DNA of 57,566 nucleotides from Actinomycetes bacterium. Its GTDB lineage: Bacteria > Actinomycetota > Acidimicrobiia > Acidimicrobiales > RAAP-2. Within the stretch, counting starts at the first letter, position 1. Every line of letters starts with the position of its first letter. A model generated the notes under the pieces. The model ran no database searches. It had not been told where the DNA came from and was given only the letters and a program-made list of their open reading frames with translations. Position numbers and translations under genes: made by a program. Shown here piece by piece: positions 6,054-54,739 of the stretch. The stretch spans positions 1 through 57,566 of the forward strand of contig JAJYXE010000022.1 of NCBI GenBank assembly GCA_021791145.1. The letters run 5' to 3'.

Positions 6054-7244
6054 GTGCTCCAGGTCCCGCACGCTCGGGCGGCTCTCGCCGGAGTGGCCGT
6101 CGCCACGCTCTCGGTCCTTCTCGCGGCGTGCGGGGGAGGGACCGCCGCCACGAAGGGCTCGTCGGGATCCCACGCGCCCCGGACGGCCTCTTCGCGCCCC
6201 GGCGCCTCGGGTGCGGGGTCGGGTGCGGGGTCGAGGTCAGGGTCCTCGAAGGGATCGAAGGCCGGATCGAAGGCCGGATCTGCGACACGGTCGACGAGCC
6301 CGCCCCGGTCGACCACGACCTCCCCGACCTCCCCGACCTCCCCGACCTCCACGACCTCCCCACCCGGCCTCCCCGCCCCGGCGACGCTGGCGCAGTTCCC
6401 GACAGCGCCGGCACTGAGCGGCGGCGGCGTGTGGGCTCCCGCAGGCCGGCCCGTCGACGGCCAGCCGGCGGTCTTCGAGACCTCCCTCGTGCCGCCCGGG
6501 GGGTCCCAGGCCGCCGGGATCGCGTGGATGGACACGCGGCTCCTCGCCGCCCGGCTCTACTCGGGATCCCTCAGCCCGGGTGGCGGACCGTACACGTACA
6601 CCGCGCCGGTCGAGCCCGCGCAGGCGACGTCGCTCGTCGCCGCCTTCAACGGCGGGTTCAAGATGGCGACAGCGAGGGGTGGGTACTACACGACAGGGAG
6701 GACCGTGGTGCCCCTCGTCGACGGCGCCGCCTCGCTCGTCATCTACGCCGACGGGTCTGTGACGGTCGGCACGTGGGGCGCGACAGTGACGATGACCCCC
6801 GACGTGGTCAGCGTGCGACAGAACCTGGTCCCCCTCGTCGAAGGCGGCCAGCCGACGCCGCAGGCGTCGAGCCCGGACTGGATGTCGTGGGGGGCAACGT
6901 GCGGGGTCAGCACCTGCACAGGCCCCGGCATCGAGAACCAGTGGCGCTCAGGCGTGGGGGTGACCGCCGACGGCGCGCTCGTCTACGTGACCGGGCCGGC
7001 ATTGTCGCCGCTCGAGCTCGCGGACCTGCTCGTGCGTGCGGGTGTGGAGAAGGGCATGCAGCTCGACATCAACCCGTACTGGACCGTCTTCGTCACCTAC
7101 GACCCGGCCACACCCCACGGGGCAGCCGCGCCGACAGACGGCAGCAAGCTCGTGGCGTCGACCGAGCAGGGCCCGGCGACCTTCTTTGAGCCCTGGTGGG
7201 CAAGGGACTTCATCACGATGTCGGCGAGGCCCGCCGGCGGCTGA
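6054..7244 (+). CDS. Lipoprotein with phosphodiester glycosidase (NAGPA) domain
   Basis: The N-terminus is a lipoprotein signal (ALAGVAVATLSVLLAAC, Cys at about 26) followed by a Ser/Thr/Gly/Lys-rich linker of about 70 residues. The rest matches the phosphodiester glycosidase/NAGPA family: AAFNGGFKM, GGYYTTGRTVVPLVDG, NQWRSGVGVTADGALVY, VEKGMQLDINPYWTVF. Members act on exposed glycosyl phosphodiesters, so an envelope polymer is the likely substrate. The linker is partly a 9-bp repeat array (6317-6361). Start is GTG 6054; the signal sequence begins directly after it. Isolated from its neighbours. Confidence 0.8.
   Translation: MLQVPHARAALAGVAVATLSVLLAACGGGTAATKGSSGSHAPRTASSRPGASGAGSGAGSRSGSSKGSKAGSKAGSATRSTSPPRSTTTSPTSPTSPTSTTSPPGLPAPATLAQFPTAPALSGGGVWAPAGRPVDGQPAVFETSLVPPGGSQAAGIAWMDTRLLAARLYSGSLSPGGGPYTYTAPVEPAQATSLVAAFNGGFKMATARGGYYTTGRTVVPLVDGAASLVIYADGSVTVGTWGATVTMTPDVVSVRQNLVPLVEGGQPTPQASSPDWMSWGATCGVSTCTGPGIENQWRSGVGVTADGALVYVTGPALSPLELADLLVRAGVEKGMQLDINPYWTVFVTYDPATPHGAAAPTDGSKLVASTEQGPATFFEPWWARDFITMSARPAGG
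6317..6361 (+). repeat. 9-bp tandem array inside the lipoprotein linker
   Basis: Five copies of GACCTCCCC (the fourth is variant) encode the SPT-type linker. Nearby, 6205-6290 also holds short Gly-Ser and Ser-Lys-Ala-Gly duplications, so the whole linker was built by in-frame slippage. Confidence 0.8.
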
Positions 7245-7340
7245 GGACGCCCTCGAGCAGGCGCCAGGCCCCCGTCCCCAGGGCGAGCCACCGGCACCTT
7301 CGAGTAGGCGCCATCCCCGCCCCCCGCCCCCCGCAGCCCG

Positions 7341-10029: not shown

Positions 10030-11298
10030 TCAGAGGAGCTCGGCGCCCAGGATCTCCCGCCACGCCGGCGGGTCGCTCGCTCCCTCGGTCACGAGCACGA
10101 GCACGGAGCTGCCTTCGTCCACGAGGGCTGCCAGCGGGGTCGCACGGCCCTGGCGCTGGAGGGCCAGGAGGCCCCCGAGCGCGGCCGCGCCGGTCTCGCC
10201 GGCCTCGATGCCGGAGGCGGCGAGCACGCGCACCGCCTCGCGCGCCCAGTCGTCGTCGATGGTGACGAACCCCGAGACCCCCGCGGAGACCCGCGGCCAG
10301 GCGACCCGAGAGGGCGTCCCGCAGTTCAGCCCGGCCATGATCGACTCCTGGGGCTCGGTCAGCGTGACGAGCGCGCCGGCGAGCACCGATGCGGTGGTGC
10401 ACGCCGCGCTGGTCGGCTCCACGCCGATGACCGATGGCGGGCGGCGAGCCGCGCGGGCGTGCGTGACCGTCGCCGCAGCGAGCGCCCCCACGCCGATGGG
10501 GACCACGACGACGTGGGGCTGCTCGTGGCCCGCACGCTCGAGCGCGTCGTCGATCTCGACGAACATGGTGCCGTATCCCTCGATGACCCAGCGCGGGACG
10601 TCGGTGTAGCCGGGCCAGCTCGTGTCGCTGATCACGAGGCACCTCGGTCCCGCCTCCTCGGCAGAGCGCGCGACGGCGTCGTCGTACCCGCCGTCGACGA
10701 TCACCACGTCGGCTCCTTCCCCCGCGATCGCATCGATGCGCGAGGTGGTAGTGCCCGCGGGCACGAAGATGCGTGCGCCGGCGCCGAGCCAACCGGCCAT
10801 GCGGGCGACGGCCCTCCCGTGGTTGCCGTCCGTGGCCGCCGCGAGGCTGAAGGGGCGGAGGGGATCGAGCGCGCTGGCGAGCTCGGCCACGTCCCCCCAG
10901 TGCAGCGACTCAGCATCCGACCCGCGCTCCAGCGCCAGCCGGGCCCGCAGGGCGCGGTAGGTGGCCCACGAGGCGCCGAGCATCTTGAAGGAGGGCAGCC
11001 CGAAGCGCGTGGACTCCGCCTTCACCAAGAGCTCCTTCACGCCGAGGGCCGAGGCGACGCGAGGGAGGGACAGGAGTGGGGTCGGCTCGTAGCCGGGCAG
11101 GCGGCGATGGAACGCGAGGATCTCTGCGGGGTCGGCCCGCTCCGCCACTTCGGGTCCCCCGGCCGCCACGTCCACGTCGGGTCCCCCGGCCGCCACGTCC
11201 ACGTCGGGTCCCCCGGCCGCCGCGTCCACGTCGGGTCCCCCGGCCGGGTCCTGGAGCCCGGCGAGGGGGTTGACGACGGCCCGGAAGCCGAAGCTCAC
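10030..11298 (-). CDS. ygeX: PLP-dependent ammonia-lyase, diaminopropionate ammonia-lyase (YgeX) family
   Basis: The 422-residue product aligns with diaminopropionate ammonia-lyase: [16 protein letters not shown], the PLP lysine in [20 protein letters not shown] with the catalytic Asp, [12 protein letters not shown] with the second Asp, [22 protein letters not shown] and VTEGASD. Known members convert 2,3-diaminopropionate to pyruvate and ammonia. In E. coli, ygeX lies with ygeY, hyuA, ssnA and xdhD in a purine/ureide cluster, and equivalents of most of these are neighbours here. The GTG start overlaps the TGA of the LLM gene. Residues about 15-45 are a 9-residue repeat (GGPDVDVAA), absent from the family. 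Confidence 0.85.
11152..11246 (-). repeat. 27-bp tandem array in the ammonia-lyase N-terminus
   Basis: About 3.5 copies of a 27-bp unit starting at 11152, 11179, 11206 and 11233 encode GGPDVDVAA repeats. They lie just before the conserved domain, so the enzyme core is undisturbed. Confidence 0.9.
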
Positions 11299-12290: not shown

Positions 12291-15001
12291 GAGCTCACCC
12301 CGGCGCCGCCACCGTCCCCACCGGCGGCGCCACCGTCCCCACCGGCGCCGCCACCGTCCCCACCGGCGCCGCCACCGTCCCCACCGGCGCCGCCACCGTC
12401 CCCACCGGCGCCGCCACCGTCCCCGCCGTCCCCGCCGGCGTGCATCGGCAGCCTCGTGCGCCAGATCCCGTCGGCGTCGTGGAGCGCGGCGGCGACGGCG
12501 CCGGCAGTCGGCACGAGGCCGATCTCGCCGACTCCCTTGATGCCGTAGGGCGAGCGCGGCTGGGGCACCTCCACGAGCAGGACCTCGATGGGCGGCACGT
12601 CCTTCGCCCTCAAGATCCCGAGCGAGCGGAGCGTCGACTTCGTCGGGAAGCCGCGCTCGTCGGCGGGGAACTCCTCGGTGAGGGCGTAGCCGAGCCCCAT
12701 GTGCACCGAACCTTCGACCTGCCCTTCGCACAGCATCGGGTTGACCGCCCTGCCGACGTCGTGCGCGGCGGCGACGCGCTCGACCGCGCGGGTCTCGCGG
12801 TCGACCACCACGAGCTGCGCGGCGTAGCCGAAGGCCGAGTGGATCGTGGGGTGCTCGACCTCCCCGATGTGGTGCGTCCAGTCGACCCGGTGCTCCCCGA
12901 CGTAGTCGACCCCCGGCACGCACCCGGCGGCCTTCGCCGCGCGGCACGCGTCGGCGACCGCGCCCGCGCCCATGAGCGTGCCCCTGCTGCCGGTCGTCTG
13001 CCCCTCCCCGAGCTCGCGCGAAGTGTCCACCTTGACGACGACCCGCGCGGGGTCGACGCCGAGCTCTTCGACCGCGACCTGGAGGGCGACCGTGTGGACG
13101 CCCTGCCCCATCTCGGTCCAGCCGTGGCGCACCTCGACGGTGCCGTCCTCCTCGAAGCGGACCACGGCGCGGGTGACCTCCTTGAAGCCGTTGCCGAGCC
13201 CGCTGTTCTTGAGGCTGAGGCCGATGCCCACGGCCTTGCCGGCGGCGCGAGCCTCCTCGTAGCGCGTCGCCAGCGCGTCCAGGCACCGCTCGGCGCCCGC
13301 ACAGCCGTCGTCCATCACCTGGCCCGGCCCCCACACGTCGCCGGGACGAACGACGTTGCGCTTGCGCATCTCCCAGCCGCTGAGCCCGGCCTTCTCGGCC
13401 AGGCGGTCCATCACCCCCTCCATCGCGAACTGCGCCTGGTTCGCGCCGAAGCCGCGGAAGGCGCCGCACACCGGGTTGTTGGTGCGCACGGCGATCGACT
13501 CCACGTCCACCGCGCCGATCCGGTAGGGGCCGGTCGCGTGGCCGGCCGCCCGTTCGAGGACCTTCATGCCGACGCTCGCGTAGGCGCCCGAGTCCCCGAC
13601 CATCCGGGCGCGCACCGCGGTCAGCCGGCCCTCGGCGTCGCAGCCGGCCCAGTACTCCATCCGGATCGGGTGGCGCTTGGGGTGCATGGCGAAGCTCTCC
13701 TCACGAGAGAGCGTGCACTTGACCGGCCGCTTGAGGAGCCACGCCGCCAGCGCCGTCTGCGCCTGGTTGGACATGTCCTCCTTGCCGCCGAAAGCGCCGC
13801 CGTTCGAGACGAGCTGGACGCTCACCCGTTCGCGCCCGACGCCCAGCACCGAGGCGATCTGGTCCCGGTCGTCCCAGACCCCTTGGCCGCCGGAGTAGAC
13901 GTGGAGGCCGCCGTCGTCGCGCGGGACGGCGAGCGTGGACTCGGGCTCGAGGAAGGCGTGCTCCACCCGCTGGGTCTCGAAGACCTCGTGCACGACGTGC
14001 GCGCTCTGCGCCAGCGCGGCGTCGACGTCGCCGCGCGCGTAGACCGATCGCGACAACACGTTGGAGTCGGTCCCCCACACCGCCACCTCCGACGACGACA
14101 GCGCGGCGAGGGGGTCGGTGAGCGGGTCGAGGGGCTCGTAGTCCACCGAGACGAGCGACGCGGCCGCCCTCGCCTCGTGCCGCGTCTCGGCCACCACCAC
14201 GGCGAGGACGTCTCCCGCGTACGACGTGCGGCCGCCCTCGGGGACGAGGACCGGCCAGTCGCGCTCGATGATCCCCACGCGCAGCTCTCCGGGCACGTCC
14301 GCCGCCGTGAGCACCGCGACCACGCCGGGGGCGGCCGCCGCGGCCGCCGTGTCGATGTGCACGACCTCGGCGCGGGCGTGCTCGGTGAGCCGGAGCGCCG
14401 CATGGAGCATGCCCGGGACCCGGAGGTCGTCGATGTACCCCCGGTCGCCGAGCGCGAGGCTCGCGGCCTCGTACTTGGGGATCGAGGCACCCACCCCCGC
14501 GTGCCCCGGCGTTGCCCGCGCAGGCGGGGTCCCCTTCGCGACGGCCTCGATGGCGTCGAGGATCTTCACGTACCCCGTGCAGCGGCACAGGTGCGCGCCC
14601 AGGTGGCGCGACATGTCCTCTCGGGTGAGGTCGGCGCCCTTCTTGTCGACCTGGGCCTTGGCGCGCATGACGATGCCGGGGATGCAGAAGCCGCACTGCA
14701 GTCCGCCGCTCGCGGCGAAGGCCTCGGCATAGCGGCGCCGCTCGTCCTCGGGAAGCCCCTCGAGCGTGACGACGCTGCGCCCGGCGGCCTTCTCCAGCGG
14801 GTACTGGCAGCTCACCTGCACCTTGCCGTCGATCATCACCGTGCAGCAGCCGCACTGCCCAGACGGCGAGCAGCCGTCCTTGGGGGAGGTGATCCCGAGC
14901 TCCTCTCGCAGTGCGGAGAGGAGGTGGGGGTGGTCTGCGCGGACCGACACCTCCTCGCCGTTCACGCTGAGCGCGACCACGTCCTTGTCGACGAGGGTCA
15001 T
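12287..15001 (-). CDS. xdhD: Fused 2Fe-2S/molybdopterin xanthine dehydrogenase (XdhD, 'selenium-dependent' type)
   Basis: The 904-residue protein fuses an iron-sulfur subunit (ferredoxin-type cluster around [10 protein letters not shown] and Cys65, helical cluster with LQCGFCIPG and HLCRCTG) to a molybdopterin domain from about residue 170 ([28 protein letters not shown], and the catalytic Glu in GIKGVGEIG). This matches the selenium-dependent xanthine dehydrogenase/XdhD group. No FAD domain is present; the separate FAD subunit at 23537 could serve it. GGAGG lies seven bases before the ATG. Both ends overlap neighbours by 4 bp. The C-terminal 45 residues are a Gly/Asp repeat tail. Hydroxylation of hypoxanthine, xanthine or a related purine is inferred. 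Confidence 0.87.
12311..12440 (-). repeat. 21-bp tandem array forming the Gly/Asp tail of the XdhD-like protein
   Basis: About six copies of a 21-bp unit (starts 12311, 12332, 12353, 12374, 12395, 12416) encode GGDGGGA. The array ends a few bases before the stop, so it lengthens the tail without reaching the catalytic domain. Confidence 0.92.
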
Positions 15002-17245: not shown

Positions 17246-17320
17246 GGTTCATTTGGACGGGTTGTCAAGTCACGCTCCGAGCCGGGTGTCGTGCGGGCTC
17301 GCTCATGCGGGCTCGGCGGC

Positions 17321-17400
17321 CGGGATCGGTCGTGCGGGACCGGCGGCCGGGATCGGTCGTGCGGGACCGGCGGCCGGGATCGGTCGTGCGGGACCGGCGG
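17321..17400. repeat. 27-bp intergenic tandem array upstream of the regulator gene
   Basis: Three copies of a 27-bp unit start at 17321, 17348 and 17375 and end just before the GGAGG of the regulator gene. The array lies in the divergent promoter region and would be in the regulator's 5' leader or promoter spacer. Confidence 0.9.
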
Positions 17401-18034: not shown

Positions 18035-18048
18035 GCAGGCGGTGCGCC

Positions 18049-18148
18049 GAGGAGGTGCGCCGGACGGCGTCGCGAGGAGGTGCGCCGGGCGGCGTGGCGA
18101 GAAGGTGCGCCGGGTGGCGTGGCGAGGAGGTGCGCCGGGCGGCGTGGC
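18049..18148. repeat. 25-bp intergenic tandem array between convergent genes
   Basis: Four copies of a 25-bp unit start at 18049, 18074, 18099 and 18124, each carrying AGGTGCGCCGG or AAGGTGCGCCGG. The period is not a multiple of three and the array lies wholly between two stop codons. Confidence 0.92.
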
Positions 18149-18152
18149 GAGG

Positions 18153-19273: not shown

Positions 19274-20677
19274 ATGCGCGGCGCAGGCGGCGGTGACACG
19301 GCGGACTGGGTGATCGAGGGGGCGGCGATCGCGACCGTGGACGCCTCGGGGACCGAGCACGGGAGCGGTCATCTGGTCGTCTCCCGCGGCCGCATCGCCG
19401 CGGTCGGCGCCGGCCGCGCCCCCGAGACAGTCGTGCCCGAGGGCGCCCGCCGGCTCGACGCCTCGGGATGCCTCCTCACGCCGGGCTTCGTCAACACCCA
19501 TCACCACTTCTCCCAGTGGCTCACGAGGGGCATGGCGCCGGACGCCGAGCTCTTCGGCTGGCTGACCGAGCTGTACCCGTGGTGGGCACTCGTCACAGAG
19601 GAGCTGGAGCACGCCGGCGCGCTCGGCGCGCTGAGCGCGTTGGCGACGAGCGGATGCACGACCACGATGGACCACCAGTACGTCTTCCCGAGCGGGGGAG
19701 GCGACCTGCTCGCGGCCGAGGTCGAGGCGGCGGCCCGGGTGGGGCTTCGCTTCCACCCCTCCCGCGGCTCGATGGACCTGGGAGCGTCGGCCGGCGGCCT
19801 CCCGCCCGACGACGTCGTGGAGGACACCGATGCTGCGCTGGCCGCCACCGACGATGCGATCTCGCGTTACCACGACCCCTCGCCCGGAGCGATGGTGCGC
19901 GTGGCGGTGGCGCCGTGCTCGCCCTTCTCGGTGAGCCGCGAGCTCATGGCGGGCGCGGCCGAGCTCGCGCGCCGCCGCGGCGTCCGGCTGCACACCCACC
20001 TGGCGGAGACCGCCGACGAGGACGCCTACTGCAAGGAGCGCTACGGCTGCACGCCTGCGGACTACGCGGCGTCGCTCGGCTGGCTCGGCGACGACGTCTG
20101 GGTGGCCCACGGCGTGCACCTCACAGCTCGCGCGCGCACGTCACTGGGGGAGGCCGGCACGGGGGTCGCGCACTGCCCCAGCTCGAACGGTCGCCTGGGC
20201 GCGGGGGTCGCGCCCGTGCCCGAGCTGCGCGCCGCAGGGGTGCCGGTGGGGCTCGGGGTCGACGGCTCGGCTTCCAACGAATCGGGAGAGCTGTGGACCG
20301 AGGTACGAGGCGCGCTCTTGACTGCCAGGGCTCGCTCGGGGGCGGGCGCGCTGGGCACCCGCGACGTCCTGGCGATGGCGACGATGACAGGGGCCCGCTG
20401 CTTGGGACGCGAGGAGGAGCTCGGATCGCTCGAGCCGGGCAAGCTCGCGGACGTCGCCCTGTGGCGCCTCGACACGGCGTCGCACGCCGGCATGGCCGAC
20501 CCCGTCGCGGCGCTCACCCTGGGCGCGCGGCCACCCCTCGAGCTCCTGCTCGTGGGGGGGCGGGCGGTGCTGGAAGAAGGGGAGCTCCGCTCGGTCGACC
20601 TGGCGCAGGTCGCCCGCGAGGTCACCGCCGCTGTGGAGCAGCTCAGGTGCGCCGCGGAGCGTGGGAAGGCGCCCTGA
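19274..20677 (+). CDS. 8-oxoguanine deaminase-like amidohydrolase
   Basis: The 467-residue protein is a cytosine/guanine-deaminase-type amidohydrolase: LTPGFVNTHHHFSQWLTRGMAPDAELFGWL (metal HxH), GCTTTMDHQY, HTHLAETADEDAYC, VAHGVHL and LGVDGSASNESGEL. The Trp-rich lid and the DHQY motif are typical of 8-oxoguanine deaminase, which makes urate from 8-oxoguanine; guanine or related rings are alternatives. The ATG at 19274 has no Shine-Dalgarno but TACAGT lies nine bases upstream, so the mRNA may be leaderless. It diverges from the ssnA-like gene. Product urate would feed the neighbouring ureide steps. Confidence 0.85.
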   Translation: MRGAGGGDTADWVIEGAAIATVDASGTEHGSGHLVVSRGRIAAVGAGRAPETVVPEGARRLDASGCLLTPGFVNTHHHFSQWLTRGMAPDAELFGWLTELYPWWALVTEELEHAGALGALSALATSGCTTTMDHQYVFPSGGGDLLAAEVEAAARVGLRFHPSRGSMDLGASAGGLPPDDVVEDTDAALAATDDAISRYHDPSPGAMVRVAVAPCSPFSVSRELMAGAAELARRRGVRLHTHLAETADEDAYCKERYGCTPADYAASLGWLGDDVWVAHGVHLTARARTSLGEAGTGVAHCPSSNGRLGAGVAPVPELRAAGVPVGLGVDGSASNESGELWTEVRGALLTARARSGAGALGTRDVLAMATMTGARCLGREEELGSLEPGKLADVALWRLDTASHAGMADPVAALTLGARPPLELLLVGGRAVLEEGELRSVDLAQVAREVTAAVEQLRCAAERGKAP

Positions 20678-20738
20678 GGACGCGCCCTGAGGACGCGCCC
20701 TGACAGGGGCCCCCTGACAGGACGCTCCCACCTCTGGC

Positions 20739-21217: not shown

Positions 21218-21952
21218 CTACGAGTCGGTGGCCGGGCTGGAGGTCGGCGAGACGTTCCCTCCGGCGTAGGCGGTGACCCCCGCAAGGGACGGCATCTTGA
21301 AGTACCCGCCCTCGCATGTCGCCGAGGCTGTGGCGCCCATCGAGGCCGCCCCAGTAAGGGTGACGGTGAGCGGGTCGCCTGAGCTCCCTGTCGGCCCGAC
21401 CACCAGCGGGGACGCGAGCGCGTGGCTGGTGCTCGCCGAAGCCGTCGCGTCGTGCCAGTACACGTCGCTCCCTGAAGACGACGCGCCGCACGCTGCGAGC
21501 GAGCTGGCGAGTCCGGATGTGCTGAAGCCCGTGGCGAAGCTGGATGAGCTCGGCACCTCGATTGTCGTGATCGTGACGGGGAACGGGTTGGGGTTCGTGA
21601 TCTTCAGGACCACGTCGCCTGTGCCCTCGGGGTACAAGAGGTTCGTCGGCGACGGTGACGAGACGGCCGTGACCGTGATGTTCTTCACGGTCGCGCCTTG
21701 CGCGAAACCGCTCGAGCCCGAAGCGAGGGACACGACCCACTGCGTCAGCGCGTAGGCGCTCGAGCCCGCCAGGAGCGTGCCGAGGAAGATCGCCGCCACC
21801 TGCGGCAGGCGCCGCTTGCGCGACGCCGTGTGCCGATGCGCCGGGTGCCGATCCGCCGAGTGCCGATCAGCCGCGTGCCTCGCCTCGTGGCGGGCCGCCC
21901 GCCCTTTCGCGTGGCGGTCCGCGCGCGACCGCCCGAGTGCAGTGCTCACCAT
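21218..21952 (-). CDS. Secreted/surface protein of unknown function with His/Arg-rich N-terminus
   Basis: The 244-residue protein begins with about 45 His/Arg/Ala-rich residues (repeats of ADRH and PAHRH) ahead of a hydrophobic segment (VAAIFLGTLLAGSSAYAL). A beta-rich Ser/Thr domain follows (DVVLKITNPNPFPVTITTIEV). The long basic lead before the membrane segment suggests late export or an anchored signal. The ATG at 21952 has GGAGG eight bases upstream; an ATG at 21967 lacks one. No family was recognised. The Thr/Ser-rich domain resembles pilin-like or sheath proteins only loosely. Confidence 0.65.
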   Translation of the reverse strand: MVSTALGRSRADRHAKGRAARHEARHAADRHSADRHPAHRHTASRKRRLPQVAAIFLGTLLAGSSAYALTQWVVSLASGSSGFAQGATVKNITVTAVSSPSPTNLLYPEGTGDVVLKITNPNPFPVTITTIEVPSSSSFATGFSTSGLASSLAACGASSSGSDVYWHDATASASTSHALASPLVVGPTGSSGDPLTVTLTGAASMGATASATCEGGYFKMPSLAGVTAYAGGNVSPTSSPATDS

Positions 21953-22101: not shown

Positions 22102-22168
22102 GTGCAATGTCATGTCCGAGGCGCGGGCGGCTGCTGGGAGAGCCGACCGCGCGCCCGTCCGGCTGCTC

Positions 22169-22283
22169 GAGCTGGCGCCCGACGCCCCCTCGAGCTGGCG
22201 CCCGACGCCCCCTCGAGCTGGCGCCCGACGCGCCCTCGAGCTGGCGCCCGACGCGCCCTCGAGCTGGCGCCCGACGCCCCCCC
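22169..22283. repeat. 23-bp intergenic tandem array
   Basis: Five copies of a 23-bp unit start at 22169, 22192, 22215, 22238 and 22261, each beginning GAGCTGGCGCCCGACG. The array lies between the divergent promoters of the secreted-protein pair and the deaminase gene; the period is not a multiple of three. Confidence 0.93.
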
Positions 22284-22299
22284 GACGTCGTCGCGGCGG

Positions 22300-22355: not shown

Positions 22356-23468
22356 TTGGACGAGTTCATCCGCCGCTTGCCCAAGTGCGAGCTGCACGTG
22401 CACCTCGAGGGGACGCTCGAGCCGGCCATGGCGCGGGCGCTGGCTGCCCGCCACAGCGCCGGCACCGACGCCAGCCACGGCGACGGCACCGGCGACCTCG
22501 GCGCCCGGCCGGCCCAGTTCTCGGGGCTGTCCGACTTCCTCTCGGCCTACTACGCAGCGATGCAGGGACTGCAGGAGGAGGGGGACTTCTACGAGCTCGC
22601 GTCCGAGTACCTGGAGACCGCGCGCCACCAGGGGGTCGTGTACGCCGAGATGTTCTTCGACCCCCAGGCGCACACCTCCCGGGGGGTGCCGTTCGACGCG
22701 GTGGTGCGCGGCATCCACCGCGCGCAGGAGGACGCGCGCGCCCGGGGCGGCCCGGACACCGCACTCGTCATGTGCTTCCTTCGCGACGAGCCGGCGGCGT
22801 CGGCCGCCGAGACGCTGGCGGCGTCGCTCCCGTACCGGGACCAAGGCTGGATCCTCGGCGTCGGGCTGGACTCCGACGAGCGCGGCCACCCGCCGGCGGA
22901 GTTCGCCGAGGTCTTCGCCCAGGCCCGGGCGGCGGGCTACCGGCTCACCATGCACTGCGACCCCCGCCAGGAGGACTCCGTCGCCCACCTCTGGCAGTGC
23001 CTCGACCTCATCGGGGTGGAGCGGATCGACCACGGCCTCGAGTGCCTCTCCGACCCGGCGCTCACCGAGGAGATCGCCCGTCGCCGGATCGGGCTCACCG
23101 CCTGCCCGCTGTCCAACCTGCGCCTGTACGGCACCTTGATGGCGGACGCGGTCACCGAGCTCTTGGCGAGGGGCGTGCTCGTGACCGTCAACTCCGACGA
23201 CCCGGCGTACTTCGGCGGCTACGTCGCCGACAACTTCGCCGCTGTCCAGGACGAGGCGGGGCTGTCCCGTGCCGAGCTGGCGACGCTTGCCGAGCACGGC
23301 TTCGAGGCGTCGTGGCTCACACAGGCACGCAAGGAGCGGTACGTGGCGGCCGTCCGCGAGTACCTGGATGCCGCCGCGCCGTCGGGGGCATCGGGGGCAT
23401 CGGGGGCATCGGGGGCGTCGGGCTCCCTGGGGGCCTCGGAGGCCCCGAAGGTGGCGGGCTCCCGCTGA
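22356..23468 (+). CDS. Adenine/adenosine deaminase
   Basis: The 370-residue protein has the adenosine deaminase pattern: LPKCELHVHLEGTLEP (metal HxH), VYAEMFFDPQ, LTMHCDP, IDHGLECL, TACPLSNLRL and VNSDDPAYFGGYVADNF. CPLSN and SDDPAYFGGY favour the adenine aminohydrolase subgroup, which makes hypoxanthine for the xanthine dehydrogenase encoded just downstream. The TTG start is fixed by homology and a GAGAGGGG upstream. The last 25 residues are a Gly-Ala-Ser tail made by a 9-bp repeat at 23381-23424. Confidence 0.83.
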   Translation: MDEFIRRLPKCELHVHLEGTLEPAMARALAARHSAGTDASHGDGTGDLGARPAQFSGLSDFLSAYYAAMQGLQEEGDFYELASEYLETARHQGVVYAEMFFDPQAHTSRGVPFDAVVRGIHRAQEDARARGGPDTALVMCFLRDEPAASAAETLAASLPYRDQGWILGVGLDSDERGHPPAEFAEVFAQARAAGYRLTMHCDPRQEDSVAHLWQCLDLIGVERIDHGLECLSDPALTEEIARRRIGLTACPLSNLRLYGTLMADAVTELLARGVLVTVNSDDPAYFGGYVADNFAAVQDEAGLSRAELATLAEHGFEASWLTQARKERYVAAVREYLDAAAPSGASGASGASGASGSLGASEAPKVAGSR

Positions 23469-33797: not shown

Positions 33798-33826
33798 GCG
33801 GCTCGACAATGATCCGCAGTGATCAG

Positions 33827-38944: not shown

Positions 38945-39941
38945 GCCGGCCGGACCCGCCCGGACCGCCGGCCCCCGGACCGCCGGCCCCCGGACCGCCG
39001 GCCCCCGGACCGCCGGCCCCGCCCTCGGTTCGCCGCCCGAACCGACCGCGCGCGAGCTCGCCACGGTGCGCCGTCTGGTGCTGCGGTCGTCGACGAGCCT
39101 GTGGAGAGACCTTCCGTGGCGCTCGACGCGAGACCCCTGGTCCGTGCTCGTGAGCGAGGTGATGCTCCAGCAGACGCAGGCTTCCCGGGTCGTCGAGCCG
39201 TTCACCCGGTTCGTCGCGCGCTTTCCGACGGTCGCCGAGTGCGCCGTGGCGAGCGTGGGGGAAGTGGTCCGTGCGTGGGCGGGGCTTGGGTACAACCGCA
39301 GGGCGCTCAACCTCCACAGGGCGGCTGTGCTCGTCGTCGACCGTCACGCGGGGCGGGTGCCCGATCAGCTCGATGACCTGCTCCGGCTTCCTGGCGTCGG
39401 CCCCTACACGGCAAGAGCCGTTCTCGCCCTCGCGTACGGGCGTCGGATCGGCGTGGTCGACACCAACGTGTCCAGGGTGTTGTCACGAGCCGTCGTCGGT
39501 CACAAGCTCGAGCCCCAAGATGCGCAGCGCCTCGCGGACCGTCTTGTTCCGGCACGGAACCCCTGGTTGTTCACCCAGGCGCTCTTCGACCTCGGGGCAC
39601 GCTGCTGCACGGCGCACGCTCCCCGCTGCGGAAGCTGCCCGCTCGCTTCGCGGTGCCGGTGGGCAGAGGCGGAGGCCGCCGAACCGGCGAACAGCGCCTG
39701 CAAGGGCACAGCGTCCGGCGATCCGGCGCGCGCCGTCCGTCGACAGCCCCCATTCGCAGGCTCCGACCGCGAGGGACGCGGGAGGCTCGTCGGGGTCCTG
39801 CGCAGCTCCTCGATCGCCCCGGACCGGCTGGCGGCCGCCGCAGGATGGCCCGGTGACGAGGCCCGTGCGCGTCGCATCGCTGAGGACCTCGTCTCCGAGG
39901 GGCTCGCGTGCTGGCGCGGGGGGGAGCTCGCCCTCAGATGA
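38922..39941 (+). CDS. mutY: A/G-specific adenine DNA glycosylase
   Basis: The 339-residue enzyme has SEVMLQQTQASRV (catalytic Glu79), the helix-hairpin-helix LPGVGPYTARAVLALA, VVDTNVSRV (Asp180) and a 4Fe-4S loop C229-x6-C236-x2-C239-x5-C245. It removes adenine mispaired with 8-oxoguanine. The long NUDIX-like C-terminal domain is missing or reduced, as in short actinobacterial forms. Residues 12-35 are a 15-bp-repeat extension (AGPRT). ATG 38922 overlaps the MaoC gene by 23 bp; a start after the repeats, such as GTG near 39066, cannot be excluded. Confidence 0.87.
   Translation: MPTTSGAEPAGPARTAGPRTAGPRTAGPRTAGPALGSPPEPTARELATVRRLVLRSSTSLWRDLPWRSTRDPWSVLVSEVMLQQTQASRVVEPFTRFVARFPTVAECAVASVGEVVRAWAGLGYNRRALNLHRAAVLVVDRHAGRVPDQLDDLLRLPGVGPYTARAVLALAYGRRIGVVDTNVSRVLSRAVVGHKLEPQDAQRLADRLVPARNPWLFTQALFDLGARCCTAHAPRCGSCPLASRCRWAEAEAAEPANSACKGTASGDPARAVRRQPPFAGSDREGRGRLVGVLRSSSIAPDRLAAAAGWPGDEARARRIAEDLVSEGLACWRGGELALR
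38961..39020 (+). repeat. 15-bp tandem array at the MutY N-terminus
   Basis: Four copies of CGGACCGCCGGCCCC. It begins 17 bp after the MaoC stop codon and encodes AGPRT repeats if the ATG at 38922 is used. The period is a multiple of three, which favours translation through it. Confidence 0.92.
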
Positions 39942-42174: not shown

Positions 42175-42258
42175 TGCGGCTCTCTTTCCTCGGTCTCCGG
42201 CAGGCTCGCCGGTGCAGTTCCACTGAAATGAGAGGTTACAGGGAACTGGCGCGCAATT

Positions 42259-42322
42259 CTTCCCGTAAGGGGATCTTCCCGTAAGGGGATCTTCCCGTAA
42301 GGGGATCTTCCCGTAAGGGGAG
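42259..42322. repeat. 16-bp palindromic iterons between tetR and the divergent gene
   Basis: Four head-to-tail copies of CTTCCCGTAAGGGGAT (last ends GGGGAG). Each holds an inverted TCCC-GTAA-GGGG core. Spacing is 16 bp, about one and a half helical turns. The array is 85 bp before the regulator's start codon. Confidence 0.9.
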
Positions 42323-42388: not shown

Positions 42389-43339
42389 ATGGAGGACGTG
42401 GAGGTAGCGGTCACGCTTGCCGCCGGCATCGGAGTCGTGGTGATCCTCGTTGCGGTCGTTCGGAGGCGCAGGATCAGTGAGGCCGAGTCGATCGACGACT
42501 ATCGCCAGACGCTCGACGTGCTGGGCCACCTGGGCGGTGGCGAGCGCAGCGGTGTCAGGCTGGTGCCGCCCCCCGAACCTGGTGCTGCCCGAACGCCTGG
42601 CTCCGCCGGCAGGGTCGGGGTCCCCGGCACCGCTTCCTTCGACGACCGGGCTGGCCAATCCTCTGCAGCGGCCGGGGGAGCCCGGGAGCCCGGGGCAGCC
42701 GGGGGAGCCGGGCGAGCCGGGGGAGCCCGGGAGCCCGGGGGAGTCGGGCGGGCCGGGGGAGAGGTGCTCGCGAGCTTCGACGATCTCGGCAAAGACGCGT
42801 CCCGCCAGCCGCTCGCCTCATCCGGCTCGGCGAGCGTGCACCCTGATCGCTCCCTCAACGCCATGCAGCGTCCCGCCCGCCGCCTGGGTGGGCTGGTCGC
42901 GGCGCTCGCCGTGCTCGTCGCCGCAGGGGCTGGCGCCGCGTACGTCGTCGTGCGCTCCCATCACGTGGCGCATCCACCGCGGCGGTCGGCCGGCACCCAT
43001 GCCCACGTCCGCACCCCCCCGACCACCACGCTCCCAGCGAAGTACACGGCGGTCGCCTCGACGAGCTCCTCTGCCACCTACCAGCCGCTGAGCACGACGT
43101 ACTCGCTCACGATCGGAGCGACCACATCGGACTGCTGGATGAGCGTGACGTCGGCGACCGGCACGATGGTGCTCGCCCAGACCTTCGCGCCCGGCGCATC
43201 GGCGTCCCTGTCGCTCACCGGTCACTCGACGATCGTGATCGGGGCACCGGGCGCGGCGAAGGTGTCCATCACCGGTGTGCCCGTGGTGCTCCCGGGCGGC
43301 GCTGGGGGGCCGCTCACGGTGACACTCGTCCCGCGCTGA
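42389..43339 (+). CDS. Membrane protein with RodZ-like (DUF4115) C-terminal domain
   Basis: The 316-residue product has a first membrane helix at about 8-25, a low-complexity Gly/Ala/Pro/Arg linker, a second hydrophobic helix at about 168-187 and a C-terminal beta domain (TSDCWMSVTSATGTMVLAQTF, ASLSLTGHSTIVIGAP) like the DUF4115 domain of RodZ. No helix-turn-helix precedes it as in true RodZ. A surface or cell-shape role is possible but unproven. The linker (42668-42763) is a GGAGCCCGGG-type repeat. ATG 42389 overlaps a TTATAT box; GTG 42398 is an alternative. Confidence 0.68.
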   Translation: MEDVEVAVTLAAGIGVVVILVAVVRRRRISEAESIDDYRQTLDVLGHLGGGERSGVRLVPPPEPGAARTPGSAGRVGVPGTASFDDRAGQSSAAAGGAREPGAAGGAGRAGGAREPGGVGRAGGEVLASFDDLGKDASRQPLASSGSASVHPDRSLNAMQRPARRLGGLVAALAVLVAAGAGAAYVVVRSHHVAHPPRRSAGTHAHVRTPPTTTLPAKYTAVASTSSSATYQPLSTTYSLTIGATTSDCWMSVTSATGTMVLAQTFAPGASASLSLTGHSTIVIGAPGAAKVSITGVPVVLPGGAGGPLTVTLVPR

Positions 43340-43442
43340 CGGATCGGCGGTCCCGGCCGCTCACGGTGACACCCGTCGCGCGCTGACGGGTCGGCGGTGC
43401 GCGGCCGCCCACGGGCGTCACGCTCCTCATCGGGGGTGGGGA

Positions 43443-44132
43443 TCAGGACCGCCCGGCGGTCTCCTGGTCTCCCCGAGCGCCCGGTGTGCCGTTGGGCGGG
43501 GCGAGGGCGGCAGCCCTGACGGCGTCGACCACCTCATCGTTGGAGGCGCCCGGGCCGAGCACGGCCGCGACGCCCATCTTCTCGAGGCGTGGAACGTCGA
43601 CGTCCGGGACGATGCCGCCGACGATCACCGGCGTCGCGAGCCCCACATCGTGCAAGGCGCCGATGACGGCGGGTGCCAGCGTGAGGTGCGCGCCGTTGTG
43701 CATCGACACGCCCACGACGTCGACGTCCTCTTGGACGACTGCGGCAGCGATGGCCTCGGGCGTCTGGCGCAGGCCGGCGAAGATGACCTCGAAACCGTGG
43801 TCGCGGAGCACCCGGGCGACCACCCGAAGCCCGCGGTCGTGCCCGTCGAGGCCCACCTTGGCGAGGAGGACCCGAATCGGCGGGTCGTCATGGCCCGCGG
43901 GTGCCCCAGCTGAGCTCGAGCCTCGTGCGCCGGCAACCCCGCCGGACACCGCGCCGGCAACCCCGCCGGCAACCCCGCCGGACACCGCGCCGGCAACCCC
44001 GCCGGACACCGCGCCGGCAACCCCGCCAACAACCCCGCCAACAACCGCGCCGGCAACCCCGCCGGAGGTGTCGGCACTGCCGCCGGAGAAGCCGGCAGCC
44101 CCGCGATCCCCAGGGCCGCGCATCGAGGTCAC
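43443..44132 (-). CDS. B12-binding small subunit of an acyl-CoA mutase
   Basis: The 229-residue protein ends in a cobalamin-binding domain: LAKVGLDGHDRGLRVVARVLRDHGFEVIFAG (DxHxxG), VGVSMHNGAHLTLAP and TPVIVGGIVPDVD. The GTG overlaps the TGA of the large-subunit gene (GTGA), so the two subunits are co-translated. The first 65 residues are a Gly/Val/Ala repeat (GGVAGAVS) with no parallel in the family, which usually starts at the B12 domain (about 135 residues). Confidence 0.86.
   Translation of the reverse strand: MTSMRGPGDRGAAGFSGGSADTSGGVAGAVVGGVVGGVAGAVSGGVAGAVSGGVAGGVAGAVSGGVAGARGSSSAGAPAGHDDPPIRVLLAKVGLDGHDRGLRVVARVLRDHGFEVIFAGLRQTPEAIAAAVVQEDVDVVGVSMHNGAHLTLAPAVIGALHDVGLATPVIVGGIVPDVDVPRLEKMGVAAVLGPGASNDEVVDAVRAAALAPPNGTPGARGDQETAGRS
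43930..44065 (-). repeat. 12/24-bp tandem array encoding the mutase small-subunit N-terminus
   Basis: GCCGGCAACCCC and GCCGGACACCGC units alternate with a 12-bp period for about 11 copies, giving GGVAGAVSGGVAGAVS-type sequence. The pattern is in frame throughout. Confidence 0.88.
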
Positions 44133-48031: not shown

Positions 48032-49113
48032 GTGCCCGTGAAGCGGGGAGGGCGTCTCTCCATGAACGCTCGCACTGCTTCGGTGAGGTCGTCGGAGGCC
48101 AGCATGCCCGCGTTCCACGTCGCGACATAGTCGAGCGCCTGCGCGATCGTCCGCCCGTCGTTCGCCGCGAGGACCGCTTTGGTGCCTTGCACCGCGAGCG
48201 GCGAGAGGGCGGCGATCTCGCGCGCCATCGACGTCGCCGCGCTGAGGAGCGCGGCGTGGTCCGGGTAGACCTCGTTGACGAGCCCGATCTCCCTTGCGCG
48301 CCTCGCGTCGAGATCCTTGCCGGTCAGCGCCAGCTCGGCGACGTGCCCGGCACCGACGATGCGGGGGAGTCGTTGGAGGGTGCCGAGGTCGGCGGTGATC
48401 GCCATCCGGGTCTCTCGGATGCCGAAGACCGCCTCGGCGGACGCGAGGCGGATGTCGCAGGCGGTCACGAGATCCATCCCGGCGCCGAGGCAGTAGCCCT
48501 GGATCGCTGCGACGACCGGCTTCGGGCAGTCAGCGATGGCGTTGATGGCTCGCTGGAGCCGCAGAATCGCCCGGCGCGTCTCGGCTGCCCTCGCAGCAGG
48601 CGACGCCGGTGCTCCGCCCTGGGAGCGGGTGGGCGGGTCGCCCTGGGAGCGGGTGGGCGGGTCGCCCTGGGAGCGGGTGGGCGGGTCGCCCTGCGAGGAG
48701 GTGGGCGGGTCGCCCTGCGAGGAGGTGGGCGGGTCGCCCTGCGAGGAGGTGGGCGGGTCGCCAGCGGGACGTGTCACGTTCCATGGGCCGCCCAAGAGCG
48801 TCGTGCCCATCTCCTTCAGGTCGAGACCGACGCTGAAGTCCCGACCTCGAGCAGCGATCACGACGACACGCACTGTCGAGTTGTCCGACAGTGCGACCAT
48901 CACGGTCGGCACCTCGTCGAAGAAGGCGCGTCCCAGCGCGTTGTGGGCGTCGGGGCGGTCGAGCCAGACGGTCGCGACTCCGCTTGCCCGGTCGAGATCC
49001 ATGTGCAGCGGGGACCTCGAAGCCGCCGGAGGGTGTGGAGGCTCCGAGGGAACCGGGGGCTCCGGGGGCTGCGAGGTTCGCGGAGCATTGGAGTCTTCAG
49101 GGACGTTCGGCAC
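48028..49113 (-). CDS. Enoyl-CoA hydratase/isomerase with an in-domain repeat insertion
   Basis: The 361-residue crotonase-family protein has SGVATVWLDRPDAHNALGRAFFDE, VVVIAARGRDFSVGLDLKEMG (first oxyanion loop), NAIADCPKPVVAAIQGYCLGAGMDLVTACDIRLAS (second loop) and LGTLQRLPRIVGAGHVAELALTGK. It resembles dienoyl-CoA isomerase-type members. Between the two oxyanion loops is an insertion of about 55 residues, mostly six GDPPTSSQ/GDPPTRSQ octapeptides. The core stays in frame. GTG 49113 lies seven bases after TAACGT, without a ribosome site; homology proper starts at about residue 38. It is the only gene running against the plus-strand SUF arm. Confidence 0.85.
   Translation of the reverse strand: MPNVPEDSNAPRTSQPPEPPVPSEPPHPPAASRSPLHMDLDRASGVATVWLDRPDAHNALGRAFFDEVPTVMVALSDNSTVRVVVIAARGRDFSVGLDLKEMGTTLLGGPWNVTRPAGDPPTSSQGDPPTSSQGDPPTSSQGDPPTRSQGDPPTRSQGDPPTRSQGGAPASPAARAAETRRAILRLQRAINAIADCPKPVVAAIQGYCLGAGMDLVTACDIRLASAEAVFGIRETRMAITADLGTLQRLPRIVGAGHVAELALTGKDLDARRAREIGLVNEVYPDHAALLSAATSMAREIAALSPLAVQGTKAVLAANDGRTIAQALDYVATWNAGMLASDDLTEAVRAFMERRPPRFTGT
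48616..48759 (-). repeat. 24-bp tandem array inside the crotonase domain
   Basis: Six copies of a 24-bp unit (starts 48616 + 24n). The first three share GGGAGCGG and the last three GCGAGGAG at the same place, so the array grew by block duplication. It encodes GDPPTSSQ x3 then GDPPTRSQ x3 in the middle of a conserved enzyme. Confidence 0.95.
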
Positions 49114-51925: not shown

Positions 51926-52552
51926 CTACGCCTCGATCTCGTCCAGGGCCTGCGTCAGCGCGTTCCAGCTGAGGGTCGCGCACTTGATCCGCACGGGAAA
52001 CTTCACCACTCCCTGAAGCGCGGCGAGCTCGCCGAGCTTGCGCACGTCGGCGAGGCCCGCTCCAGTGCCGGCACCATTGGATGCCTCCACGCCGCTCGTC
52101 CCTGCCTCGCCGGCTAGAGCCTCGCCGCCTCGAGCCTCGCCGGCTAGAGTCTCGCCGCCTCGAGCCTCGCCGCCTCGAGCCTCGCCGCCTCGAGCCTCGC
52201 CCGGACTCTGCACGCGGCCCTCCTCGGCCTCGGGGCCAAGCGCGGCTTCGTGGATGGACATCATCGACTTGAAAGTCCGGATGAGCTCGCGGACCTCGCC
52301 CAGCGTCTTTCCCTTCACTGCTGAGGACATGAGCGATGCCGACGATTGACTGATCGAGCACCCGGTGCCGGCGAACTTGATGTCGGTCACCGTTCCATTC
52401 TCAGCGAGAACGGTGAGGACGACCTCATCCCCGCAAAGCGGATTGAACCCTTCGACGCGGTGCGCGGGAGGTGAGTCCAGCTCGCCGCGGTTCCGCGGTG
52501 AGCGGTAGTGGTCCAAGATGATCTCCCGGTAGAGGTCTTCCAGGTCCGTCAC
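51926..52552 (-). CDS. sufU: Fe-S assembly sulfur carrier SufU with a repeat insertion
   Basis: The 208-residue SufU has the zinc ligands Cys40 and Asp42 (NPLCGDE), Cys65 (GTGCSISQSS) and Cys191 (RIKCATLSW). It takes persulfide sulfur from SufS. SufU is normally about 145-150 residues. The excess is a Gly/Glu/Ala/Arg insertion at about 105-165, between the central helix and the last conserved segment, mostly a 15-bp repeat. The GTG overlaps the sufS stop (GTGA), so the two are coupled. Confidence 0.92.
   Translation of the reverse strand: MTDLEDLYREIILDHYRSPRNRGELDSPPAHRVEGFNPLCGDEVVLTVLAENGTVTDIKFAGTGCSISQSSASLMSSAVKGKTLGEVRELIRTFKSMMSIHEAALGPEAEEGRVQSPGEARGGEARGGEARGGETLAGEARGGEALAGEAGTSGVEASNGAGTGAGLADVRKLGELAALQGVVKFPVRIKCATLSWNALTQALDEIEA
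52104..52193 (-). repeat. 15-bp tandem array inserted in sufU
   Basis: Six copies of GCCTCGCCGCCTCGA or GCCTCGCCGGCTAGA-type units encode GEARG and GEALA pentapeptides. The two subtypes alternate at the 5' end and then one is amplified. Confidence 0.93.
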
Positions 52553-53808: not shown

Positions 53809-53821
53809 TGGAACATCCGTG

Positions 53822-54739
53822 TCAGCGTCGCCACGACTCGTAGCCTTCCTTCTCGATCCGTTCAGCCAGCGCGGGCCCTCCGCTTTCTACGATCCTTCCG
53901 TCGACCAGCAGGTGCACGCGGTCGGGGACGAGCGCCTCGAGGAGCCGCTGGTAGTGCGTCACGACGAGCACACCGAGCGAGGGATGGAGCTCGCGCACCG
54001 TGCCGACGCCGCGGCCCACGACGCCGAGCGCGTCGATATCGAGGCCTGAGTCGGTCTCGTCGAGGACGGCCAGATCCGGTTCCAGCATCGCCATCTGCAG
54101 AATCTCGTTGCGCTTCTTCTCGCCTCCGGAGAAGCCCTGGTTGAGATATCGCTCGCCGAAGGAGGGGTCCATTCTCAGGCGGTCCATCCATTCGATCATG
54201 GCCAGTCGCACCTCGAGCACCGAGATGTCCTGGCCGCGGCGTGCGGACATGGCTTGGCGCAGGAACTGGGCGACCGAGACGCCATCGATCGCCTCGGGAT
54301 ACTGAAAGGCGAGGAAGAGGCCGGCCTTCGCACGGGCGTCGGTGGCCCAATGGGTGATGTCCTCCCCCTTGAACCGGATGGTGCCGTCGACGACTCGGTA
54401 GGACGGGCTCCCCATCAGGGTGGAAGCCAGGGTGGACTTGCCTGCCCCGTTCGGACCCATGAGCGCGTGGACTTCTCCGGGCCTGATGGTGAGGTCCACC
54501 CCCTTGAGGATCAGTCCTTCGCTGGCGTGCCCCGCGCTGCCGGGGTCGAGCCCTGGGTCGCCCTGGTCGCGCCCAACGCCGCCGGGGTCGAGCCCTGGGT
54601 CCGAGCTGCGGCTTTCGTCGGCGGCGGATGCCGGGGTGGTCACGCCTTCTCCGGCGACGCCTTCTCCGGCGACACCCACTCCGGCGACACCCACCGCGGC
54701 GACGCGGAGTCCCTCGATCTCGAGCAGCGGCACGGTCAT
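53822..54739 (-). CDS. sufC: Fe-S assembly ATPase SufC (copy 2) with an N-terminal repeat insertion
   Basis: A 305-residue second SufC: Walker A MGPNGAGKST (95-103), signature FSGGEKKRNEI (203-213), Walker B AVLDETDSGLD (Glu228) and H-loop VTHYQ (His262), all intact. SufC is usually about 250 residues. The extra 55-60 residues lie between the first two beta strands, in a surface turn, and are repeat-derived. It differs from copy 1 in most positions outside motifs, so it is not a recent duplicate. ATG 54739 lies eight bases after TAGACT, suggesting leaderless expression. Confidence 0.92.
   Translation of the reverse strand: MTVPLLEIEGLRVAAVGVAGVGVAGEGVAGEGVTTPASAADESRSSDPGLDPGGVGRDQGDPGLDPGSAGHASEGLILKGVDLTIRPGEVHALMGPNGAGKSTLASTLMGSPSYRVVDGTIRFKGEDITHWATDARAKAGLFLAFQYPEAIDGVSVAQFLRQAMSARRGQDISVLEVRLAMIEWMDRLRMDPSFGERYLNQGFSGGEKKRNEILQMAMLEPDLAVLDETDSGLDIDALGVVGRGVGTVRELHPSLGVLVVTHYQRLLEALVPDRVHLLVDGRIVESGGPALAERIEKEGYESWRR
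54520..54703 (-). repeat. Compound repeat tract in sufC2
   Basis: A duplication of about 48 bp containing GGGGTCGAGCCCTGGGT lies at about 54540-54605. Four copies of GCCTTCTCCGGCGAC-type 15-bp units follow at 54644-54703. Both are in frame and encode DPGLDPG and GEGVA/GVGVA sequence in the strand 1-2 turn. Confidence 0.85.

What the first reader, a model, noticed from the sequence alone, without database searches (positions are those of the whole stretch)
6317..54703. About twenty unrelated tandem repeat arrays; inside genes the unit is always a multiple of three
Seen directly: arrays with units of 9, 12, 15, 21, 24, 27 and 42 bp inside genes, and 7, 16, 23, 24, 25 and 27 bp between genes, all of different sequence. 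They form tails, N-terminal extensions and surface-loop insertions in conserved enzymes. Known biology: replication slippage makes tandem repeats and frame filters those in genes. Inference: this lineage creates minisatellites at an unusual rate or fails to remove them, possibly through a repair or replication defect or a dedicated mechanism. The density, roughly one array per 2.5 kb, is far above what I know from GC-rich genomes.
Basis: partly seen in the sequence, partly recalled or inferred. Interest (0 to 1): 0.85.

Follow-up and report, generated by a model that had tools for sequence, protein, structure and literature searches.

The report
Bacterium riddled with growing tandem repeats
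This stretch of an uncultured soil-type bacterium's genome carries a short DNA stutter every two to three kilobases; the stutters change length over time, and inside genes they survive almost only where they keep the reading frame and hang from floppy parts of the protein.

Summary
Confirmed. TRF finds 28 separate arrays at score >=70 (18 at >=100) in 57.6 kb; shuffles of the window give none. The window comes from an uncultured Acidimicrobiia relative. Counted as >=4 copies of 10-200 bp it has 10 arrays (174/Mb), against 1.9/Mb in 32 unrelated loci and at most 23/Mb for bacteria in a published table. Genome G001 (94/Mb) and some of its family share the trait; many sampled genomes of equal GC, and the window's own clade, have little. 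In ten genomes 63 of 65 in-gene arrays have units divisible by three, against 45 of 95 between genes. Strong arrays are active: near-identical proteins differ by whole units, unrelated units arise in the same enzyme loop, and two genomes 91% identical hold one array in 7.2 and 5.1 copies. Best reading: ordinary slippage at a high, lineage-specific rate, filtered by frame and protein tolerance. No dedicated mechanism was seen. NucS loss does not track density; flap-endonuclease loss does so in one family only, post hoc.

The parts
6316..6361 (.). 9-bp x5.1 array in the open extension upstream of the called start of the NAGPA-like gene (6387-7244)
11145..11246 (.). 27-bp x3.8, N-terminal part of a PLP-dependent enzyme (10030-11307, -)
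12300..12436 (.). 21-bp x6.5, C-terminal tail of a molybdenum hydroxylase (12287-15001, -)
17294..17400 (.). 27-bp x4.0 between genes, just upstream of 17417
18048..18152 (.). 25-bp x4.2, fills the gap between two convergent genes
20669..20703 (.). 13-bp x2.7 at the 3' end of the amidohydrolase gene 19274-20677
21824..21879 (.). 15-bp x3.7 between genes
22166..22285 (.). 23-bp x5.2 between genes
22446..22491 (.). 24-bp x1.9 near the N-end of the adenosine deaminase-like gene
23382..23422 (.). 9-bp x4.6, C-terminal tail of the adenosine deaminase-like gene
24414..24509 (.). 42-bp x2.3, N-terminal extension of a [2Fe-2S] protein (24393-25016, +)
27345..27523 (.). three adjoining arrays between genes: 7-bp x7.3, 26-bp x2.4 (13-bp x4.9) and 7-bp x9.6
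28281..28380 (.). 27-bp x3.7, C-terminal tail of an aquaporin-family protein (28254-29246, -)
29533..29578 (.). 23-bp x2.0 between genes
29647..29743 (.). 15-bp x6.5, C-terminal tail of Lgt (29603-30673, -)
33726..33804 (.). 24-bp x3.3 between genes
38959..39020 (.). 15-bp x4.1 between the called genes, in frame with an open extension of the HhH-GPD glycosylase
42258..42321 (.). 16-bp x4.0, four perfect copies between genes
42671..42761 (.). 45-bp x2.0 (9-bp sub-units) inside a RodZ_C-domain gene (42389-43339, +)
43308..43414 (.). 47-bp x2.2, straddles the 3' end of the same gene
43928..44065 (.). 12-bp x11.5, N-terminal extension of the B12-binding protein (43443-44132, -); two units shorter in P0241
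47981..48035 (.). 15-bp x3.6 at the 3' end of the enoyl-CoA hydratase gene, mostly outside it
48615..48762 (.). 24-bp x6.2, loop insertion (residues 118-166) of an enoyl-CoA hydratase (48028-49113, -)
52104..52201 (.). 15-bp x6.5 in the second half of a NifU-like SUF protein (51926-52552, -)
54539..54601 (.). 21-bp x3.0 (66% match) near the N-end of an ABC ATPase (53822-54739, -)
54649..54703 (.). 15-bp x3.7 at the N-end of the same ABC ATPase

Best explanation
The arrays are minisatellites made by replication slippage or template switching between short chance repeats, in a lineage where such events happen, or survive, far more often than usual. A segment flanked by a few identical bases is duplicated, copies slip to make more, and strong arrays gain, lose and homogenise units quickly, then decay. 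Birth looks random in sequence and place. Arrays that remain in genes have passed two filters: the unit keeps the reading frame, and the extra peptide hangs from a tolerant place (tail, N-terminal extension, disordered loop). Shown here: density, frame filter, placement, copy-number differences and independent re-birth in the same loop. Inferred: slippage as the molecular step, and a raised rate rather than weaker removal. The enzyme behind the rate is not identified.
For: Density against shuffles and other genomes. Frame: 63 of 65 in genes (p=8e-28) against 45 of 95 between genes. Arrays are 6.7 times denser between genes, and 38 of 65 in-gene arrays lie near a protein end against 34% expected; peptides rich in P, G, A, D, S. 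Copy number: B12 subunit of the window and P0241 differ by 8 aa and in no other aligned residue; P0122/P0123 by 9 aa; P0098/P0099 and P0099/P0101 by 5 aa. Unrelated units in the same ECH loop and Lgt tail of relatives. G010/G011 share a 15-bp array with 7.2 and 5.1 copies, each set carrying unit changes absent from the other. Near-perfect two-copy duplications (29) have a median overhang of 3 bases against 0.8 expected.
Against: Three degenerate arrays have equal length in G010 and G011 and a fourth differs by one base. For two of three window arrays compared with near-identical deposited proteins the copy number was the same (Lgt P0001, ECH P0121; and the 100% match). Of 142 indels of >=3 aa in pairs of >=95% identity only 63 are tandem by my test. 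Between-gene units divisible by three (45 of 95) exceed one third (p=0.003), so some coding arrays were probably missed. The overhang result is biased by the TRF score cut-off. The P0241 difference could be an assembly variant.
Confidence: 0.75

Rival explanations
1. Loss of mismatch repair (NucS/EndoMS or MutS-MutL) lets slipped intermediates survive, so arrays multiply.
For: NucS was found in 0 of 30 sampled near relatives and 10 of 10 distant class members; MutL in 0 of 40. All 8 genomes that group with the window in the Lgt tree lack NucS.
Against: Among genomes of GC >=0.63, density is 0.79 per 10 kb with NucS (17 genomes) and 0.58 without (23), one-sided p=0.60. Array-rich G008, G009 and G010 have NucS. 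The window's NucS-free clade is array-poor. A review says NucS cannot correct indels (PMC8228993, passages).
Confidence: 0.07
2. Weakened processing of lagging-strand flaps (loss of the stand-alone flap endonuclease beside Pol I) raises tandem duplication, as FEN1/Rad27 loss does in yeast.
For: In G001's family, 6 genomes without the second 5'-nuclease have 1.40 arrays per 10 kb and 11 with it 0.35 (one-sided p=0.02); G006, nested among genomes that have it, has 7 in 72 kb against 2 in 121 kb for G004 plus G005 (p=0.017). Yeast rad27 mutants make ABA to ABABA insertions (PMC5677150, passages).
Against: Post hoc, on the data that suggested it. Outside the family the trend reverses (7 without 0.15, 15 with 0.43, p=0.91); all high-GC genomes together p=0.27; 16 low-GC genomes without it were left out of these tests. 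G002 (without, 0), G008 and G360 (with, 1.78 and 1.02) do not fit, and the window's clade lacks it but is array-poor. MAG incompleteness can mimic loss.
Confidence: 0.13
3. The duplication rate is ordinary but removal is weak: relaxed purifying or deletion pressure lets arrays stay.
For: Arrays are densest between genes (8.06 against 1.21 per 10 kb), where removal depends only on weak selection.
Against: Perfect multi-copy arrays, copy-number differences in otherwise identical proteins and shared unit changes within an array point to quick turnover, not slow build-up. Not tested against population size or gene-loss data.
Confidence: 0.2
4. A dedicated, sequence-specific element or enzyme makes the arrays.
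For: None found.
Against: Top flank 7-mer in 16 of 109 arrays against a random mean of 14.4 (maximum 19 in 50 draws); no unit families beyond one strong pair in G001 and weak sharing of G+C-rich 10-mers in the window and G001.
Confidence: 0.03
5. The arrays, or their copy numbers, are assembly artefacts.
For: Relatives are MAGs; P0241 sits on a contig of 57,440 bases, close to the window's 57,566, and may be another assembly of the same organism. Tandem repeats are known to cause assembly errors (PMC6868369, seen in a listing only).
Against: Arrays recur in many independent genomes with a strict frame rule in genes. Contig ends reach arrays more often than chance (6 of 53 against 2.2%), so assemblies break at arrays and the density is more likely understated.
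Confidence: 0.04

Closest known systems
Prokaryotic satellites surveyed by Subirana and Messeguer 2019 (PMC6749651; part 1 of the text and passages read): Methanosarcina, Burkholderia, Chloroflexus, Methanobrevibacter
   Same: Unrelated tandem arrays scattered over the genome, mostly short, many with units divisible by three that code amino-acid repeats.
   Different: Density: 174/Mb here and 94/Mb in G001 against at most 23.0/Mb for bacteria and 89/Mb for archaea in their Table 1; a different program was used, so the comparison is approximate.
VNTR loci used for strain typing, for example in mycobacteria (recalled)
   Same: Minisatellite units with copy number that differs between close relatives.
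   Different: Here dozens of unrelated loci per 100 kb, many in housekeeping enzymes, rather than a few dozen per genome (the latter recalled).
Yeast rad27 (FEN1) mutants (PMC5677150, passages)
   Same: Insertions that duplicate short segments flanked by short direct repeats, and minisatellite instability.
   Different: A laboratory mutant; a link to flap-endonuclease loss is only partial here.

Membership tests
Bacterial minisatellites (VNTR-type loci) | Head-to-tail units of about 7-60 bp | tested here: met
   28 arrays at score >=70 in the window, all with units of 7-60 bp
Bacterial minisatellites (VNTR-type loci) | Copy number differs between near-identical relatives | tested here: met
   Four protein pairs identical outside the gap differ by whole units; G010/G011 15-bp array 7.2 against 5.1 copies. 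Of three window arrays compared, one differs
Bacterial minisatellites (VNTR-type loci) | Polymorphism within one population shown by reads | not testable with these tools
   No reads or strain collection held
Dispersed satellite family (Leptospira-like) | The same unit at several loci | tested here: not met
   No unit families in 8 of 10 genomes; weak G+C-rich 10-mer sharing in the window and one strong pair in G001
Mismatch-repair mutator | No NucS and no MutL in the window's organism | not testable with these tools
   No genome held for the window; the 8 genomes grouped with it in the Lgt tree lack both
Mismatch-repair mutator | Array density higher where NucS is missing | tested here: not met
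   0.58 without against 0.79 with, p=0.60
FEN/rad27-type duplication mutator | Stand-alone flap endonuclease missing where arrays are dense | tested here: inconclusive
   p=0.02 inside G001's family, p=0.91 outside it
FEN/rad27-type duplication mutator | New duplications flanked by short direct repeats (ABA to ABABA) | tested here: inconclusive
   29 near-perfect two-copy duplications, median overhang 3 bases against 0.8 expected, but the scan favours longer overhangs

The most novel reading that the evidence does not exclude
Several acidimicrobial lineages, separately, are natural minisatellite mutators: altered lagging-strand or flap processing, in genomes many of which also lack the known mismatch-repair systems, keeps injecting short in-frame tandem peptides into tails and loops of housekeeping enzymes, so that protein disorder evolves at a pace otherwise known from repair mutants.
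Probability: 0.15. Interest if true: 0.78.

Novelty: new member of a known kind. Interest (0 to 1): 0.52.

Why it matters
If the density holds genome-wide, this lineage is richer in minisatellites than any bacterium in the survey I could read, while related species of similar GC have few. That makes the question of what sets the rate of tandem duplication in bacteria open to comparative and genetic tests. It also shows tails and loops of ordinary enzymes being born from DNA slippage, with unrelated repeats arising at the same site. In passing it points to many acidimicrobial genomes in which neither NucS nor MutL is found.

Tried and rejected
NucS loss as the driver: no association. Exonuclease VII: 27 of 28 genomes match and 25 exceed the cut-off; of the three below it, G010 and G232 are array-rich and G007 is middling, so it is not a general cause but is not cleared for those genomes. 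Ku/NHEJ: found in 11 of 28; G008 and G360 have it, G001, G009 and G010 do not. Flap endonuclease: kept as a weak rival. GC: Spearman 0.24, p=0.08 over 56 genomes. Dedicated element: no common flanks. G232 was left out of the flap-endonuclease test because no Pol I or 5'-nuclease domain was found in it at all; G008 also lacks a Pol I match, which may be incompleteness. Rfam (gathering threshold) and tRNA scans of the window found nothing. The structure model of the ECH protein is poor overall (mean pLDDT 65; two other stretches are also under 50), so only the lack of structure over residues 110-166 was used. Sampling: most genomes were sampled at 8-80 kb, not at random (G001's family, the best Lgt relatives, and ten distant genomes); no completeness figures are given for them. 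Papers: no report of this was found with 'Acidimicrobiia' + 'tandem repeats' (0 papers), 'Acidimicrobiales' + 'mismatch repair' (2 papers, listing only, neither on this by title), nor among the titles listed; that is the whole basis of that statement. PMC10191290 (B. subtilis FenA) was seen in passages only.

Full report
OBSERVATION. TRF lists 46 rows in the 57,566-base window, which reduce to 36 non-overlapping arrays at score >=50, 28 at >=70 and 18 at >=100. Shuffling trinucleotides within 300-base blocks gives on average 2.0, 0 and 0 (3 shuffles).

WHAT IT LIVES IN. No genome of the window's organism is held. In an Lgt tree the window groups with G410, G064, G123, G135, G248, G392, G407 and G326 (support 100/98). 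Pfam places the arrays in ordinary genes: Lgt, an aquaporin, an enoyl-CoA hydratase (ECH), a B12-binding protein beside a methylmalonyl-CoA mutase gene, SUF components, a molybdenum hydroxylase and a deaminase.

HOW UNUSUAL. Of the 80 SufB loci only L004 (3.7 arrays at score >=100 per 10 kb) matches the window (3.1); the other 79 have 0-1.2. L004 lies in genome G001, whose other stretches are mostly rich too (0-3.7 per 10 kb). Over 56 sampled genomes of the class (2.09 Mb, not a random sample) there are 120 arrays with units of 7-60 bp at score >=100, 0.57 per 10 kb. At or above 1.0 are the window 3.13, G001 2.27, G009 1.98, G008 1.78, G010 1.73, G360 1.02, and three genomes seen over 20 kb only (G232 2.0, G231 and G250 1.0). 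Many genomes of equal GC have none, and the eight genomes of the window's clade have 0-0.4. So the trait is not shared by the window's clade and seems to have risen more than once. A published survey defines satellites as at least four repeats of 10-200 nt and lists, among its satellite-rich species, at most 23.0 per Mb for bacteria and 89 for archaea (PMC6749651, part 1 of the text). My TRF version of that rule gives 10 arrays in the window (174/Mb), 12 in 127.5 kb of G001 (94/Mb; 8 in 106 kb, 75/Mb, without L004), 28-53/Mb in G006, G008-G011 and G360, 1 in 528 kb of 32 unrelated loci (1.9/Mb) and 3 in 736 kb of 47 other SufB loci of the group (4.1/Mb). The program differs from theirs, so the comparison is approximate. 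The window was singled out for its repeats, so G001 is the fairer estimate.

FRAME AND PLACE. With a codon-model gene call in ten genomes (655 kb, 82% coding), 63 of 65 in-gene arrays have units divisible by three (p=8e-28) against 45 of 95 between genes; 17 at gene edges were left out. The two exceptions are two-copy arrays in G008 and G009. Between genes 45 of 95 is above one third (p=0.003), so some coding arrays were probably missed. An array that breaks a frame also breaks the called gene, so the test is partly circular. Density is 1.21 per 10 kb in genes and 8.06 between them. In the window alone the counts are 12 of 12, 5 of 12, and 4 left out. Of the 65, 20 lie near the N-end, 18 near the C-end and 27 inside; 38 of 65 near an end compares with 34% expected. 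The peptides are rich in P, G, A, D and S and poor in W, C, Y, F, I and L. The ECH array (residues 118-166) lies between two blocks that align to the solved homologue 8soy (query 45-106 and 177-346), which has 10 residues there; the predicted model, poor overall, shows no structure over it.

YOUNG AND ACTIVE. Among the homologues listed for three window proteins (best 120 each of 1609, 7787 and 5270), four pairs identical outside the gap differ by whole units: the window's B12 protein and P0241 (8 aa, two 12-bp units), P0122/P0123 (9 aa), P0098/P0099 and P0099/P0101 (5 aa). Over all 253 pairs of >=95% identity there are 142 internal indels of >=3 aa, 63 of them tandem by my test; pairs share ancestry, so these are not independent events. 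The window's Lgt and ECH arrays keep their copy number in the near-identical P0001 and P0121, the latter with one changed residue. The ECH loop that holds the GDPPTSSQ-type array in the window holds GSAGSTDRA or GDPS units in relatives, and the Lgt tail holds unrelated repeats in different relatives. In DNA, G010 and G011 (91.5% and 91.4% identical over two blocks totalling 18 kb) share a 15-bp array with 7.2 and 5.1 copies, all copies of each carrying differences absent from the other; a 10-bp array of G011 is not an array in G010; an 18-bp array is perfect in G011 and degenerate in G010. Against this, three degenerate arrays have the same length in both and a fourth differs by one base; three further arrays could not be placed. 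Strong arrays turn over quickly; weak ones look like relics.

MECHANISM. Arrays share no flank motif (top 7-mer in 16 of 109 arrays; random mean 14.4, maximum 19 in 50 draws) and no unit family apart from one strong pair in G001 and weak G+C-rich sharing in the window and G001. Near-perfect two-copy duplications (29) have a median overhang of 3 bases against 0.8 expected, as duplication between short direct repeats would leave, though the scan favours it. Contig ends reach arrays more often than chance (6 of 53 against 2.2%, p=0.001, seven genomes), so assemblies break at arrays and density is probably understated.

REPAIR GENES. MutL: 0 of 40 genomes. NucS: 0 of 30 near relatives and 10 of 10 distant class members among the same 40, but 7 of 17 in G001's family. 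Density does not follow NucS (0.79 with, 0.58 without, one-sided p=0.60, GC >=0.63), and a review states that NucS cannot correct indels (PMC8228993, passages). ExoVII: 25 of 28 over the cut-off, array-rich G010 and G232 below it. Ku: 11 of 28. The 5'-nuclease domain is found in 27 of 28 and 28 of 28 genomes; a second, stand-alone flap-endonuclease-like copy occurs in 12 of the first 28 (in G008 it is the only match) and 14 of the second 28. In G001's family its absence goes with more arrays (6 genomes 1.40, 11 genomes 0.35 per 10 kb, one-sided p=0.02), including a nested loss in G006 (p=0.017 against G004 plus G005); outside the family the trend reverses (0.15 against 0.43, p=0.91), all high-GC genomes together give p=0.27, and G002, G008, G360 and the window's clade do not fit. 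The test is post hoc. Yeast without FEN1 makes such duplications (PMC5677150, passages). This is a lead, not a result.

VERDICT. The repeats are minisatellites of a known kind, the strong ones active, shaped by slippage (inferred) and filtered by frame and protein tolerance (shown). What raises their number is open.

Noticed in passing
40 whole genomes: 30 sampled near relatives of the window lack both NucS (PF01939) and MutL (PF01119) by family search, while 10 distant class members have NucS. Seven of 17 genomes in G001's family do have NucS.
   Followed up: partly
whole genomes: A second stand-alone flap-endonuclease-like gene and Ku are patchily present in the class.
   Followed up: partly
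L250:11136-11243 (genome G001): A 51-bp in-frame tandem array lies inside the DNA polymerase I gene, between the 5'-nuclease and polymerase domains.
   Followed up: no
window 18034-18153: The 25-bp array occupies 105 of the 118 bases between two convergent genes.
   Followed up: no
window 12287-15136 and 23537-27309: Two molybdenum hydroxylase systems with an adenosine deaminase-like gene, amidohydrolases and a permease nearby, possibly a purine-type catabolic cluster.
   Followed up: no
L004:14098-14659 and several sampled genomes: Tandem units of about 122-138 bp recur in many class members; possibly a repeated protein domain. Units over 60 bp were left out of the density counts.
   Followed up: no
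ECH loop and Lgt tail of homologues P0001-P0240: The same loop and tail vary in length among more distant relatives too, often by short glycine-rich insertions.
   Followed up: partly
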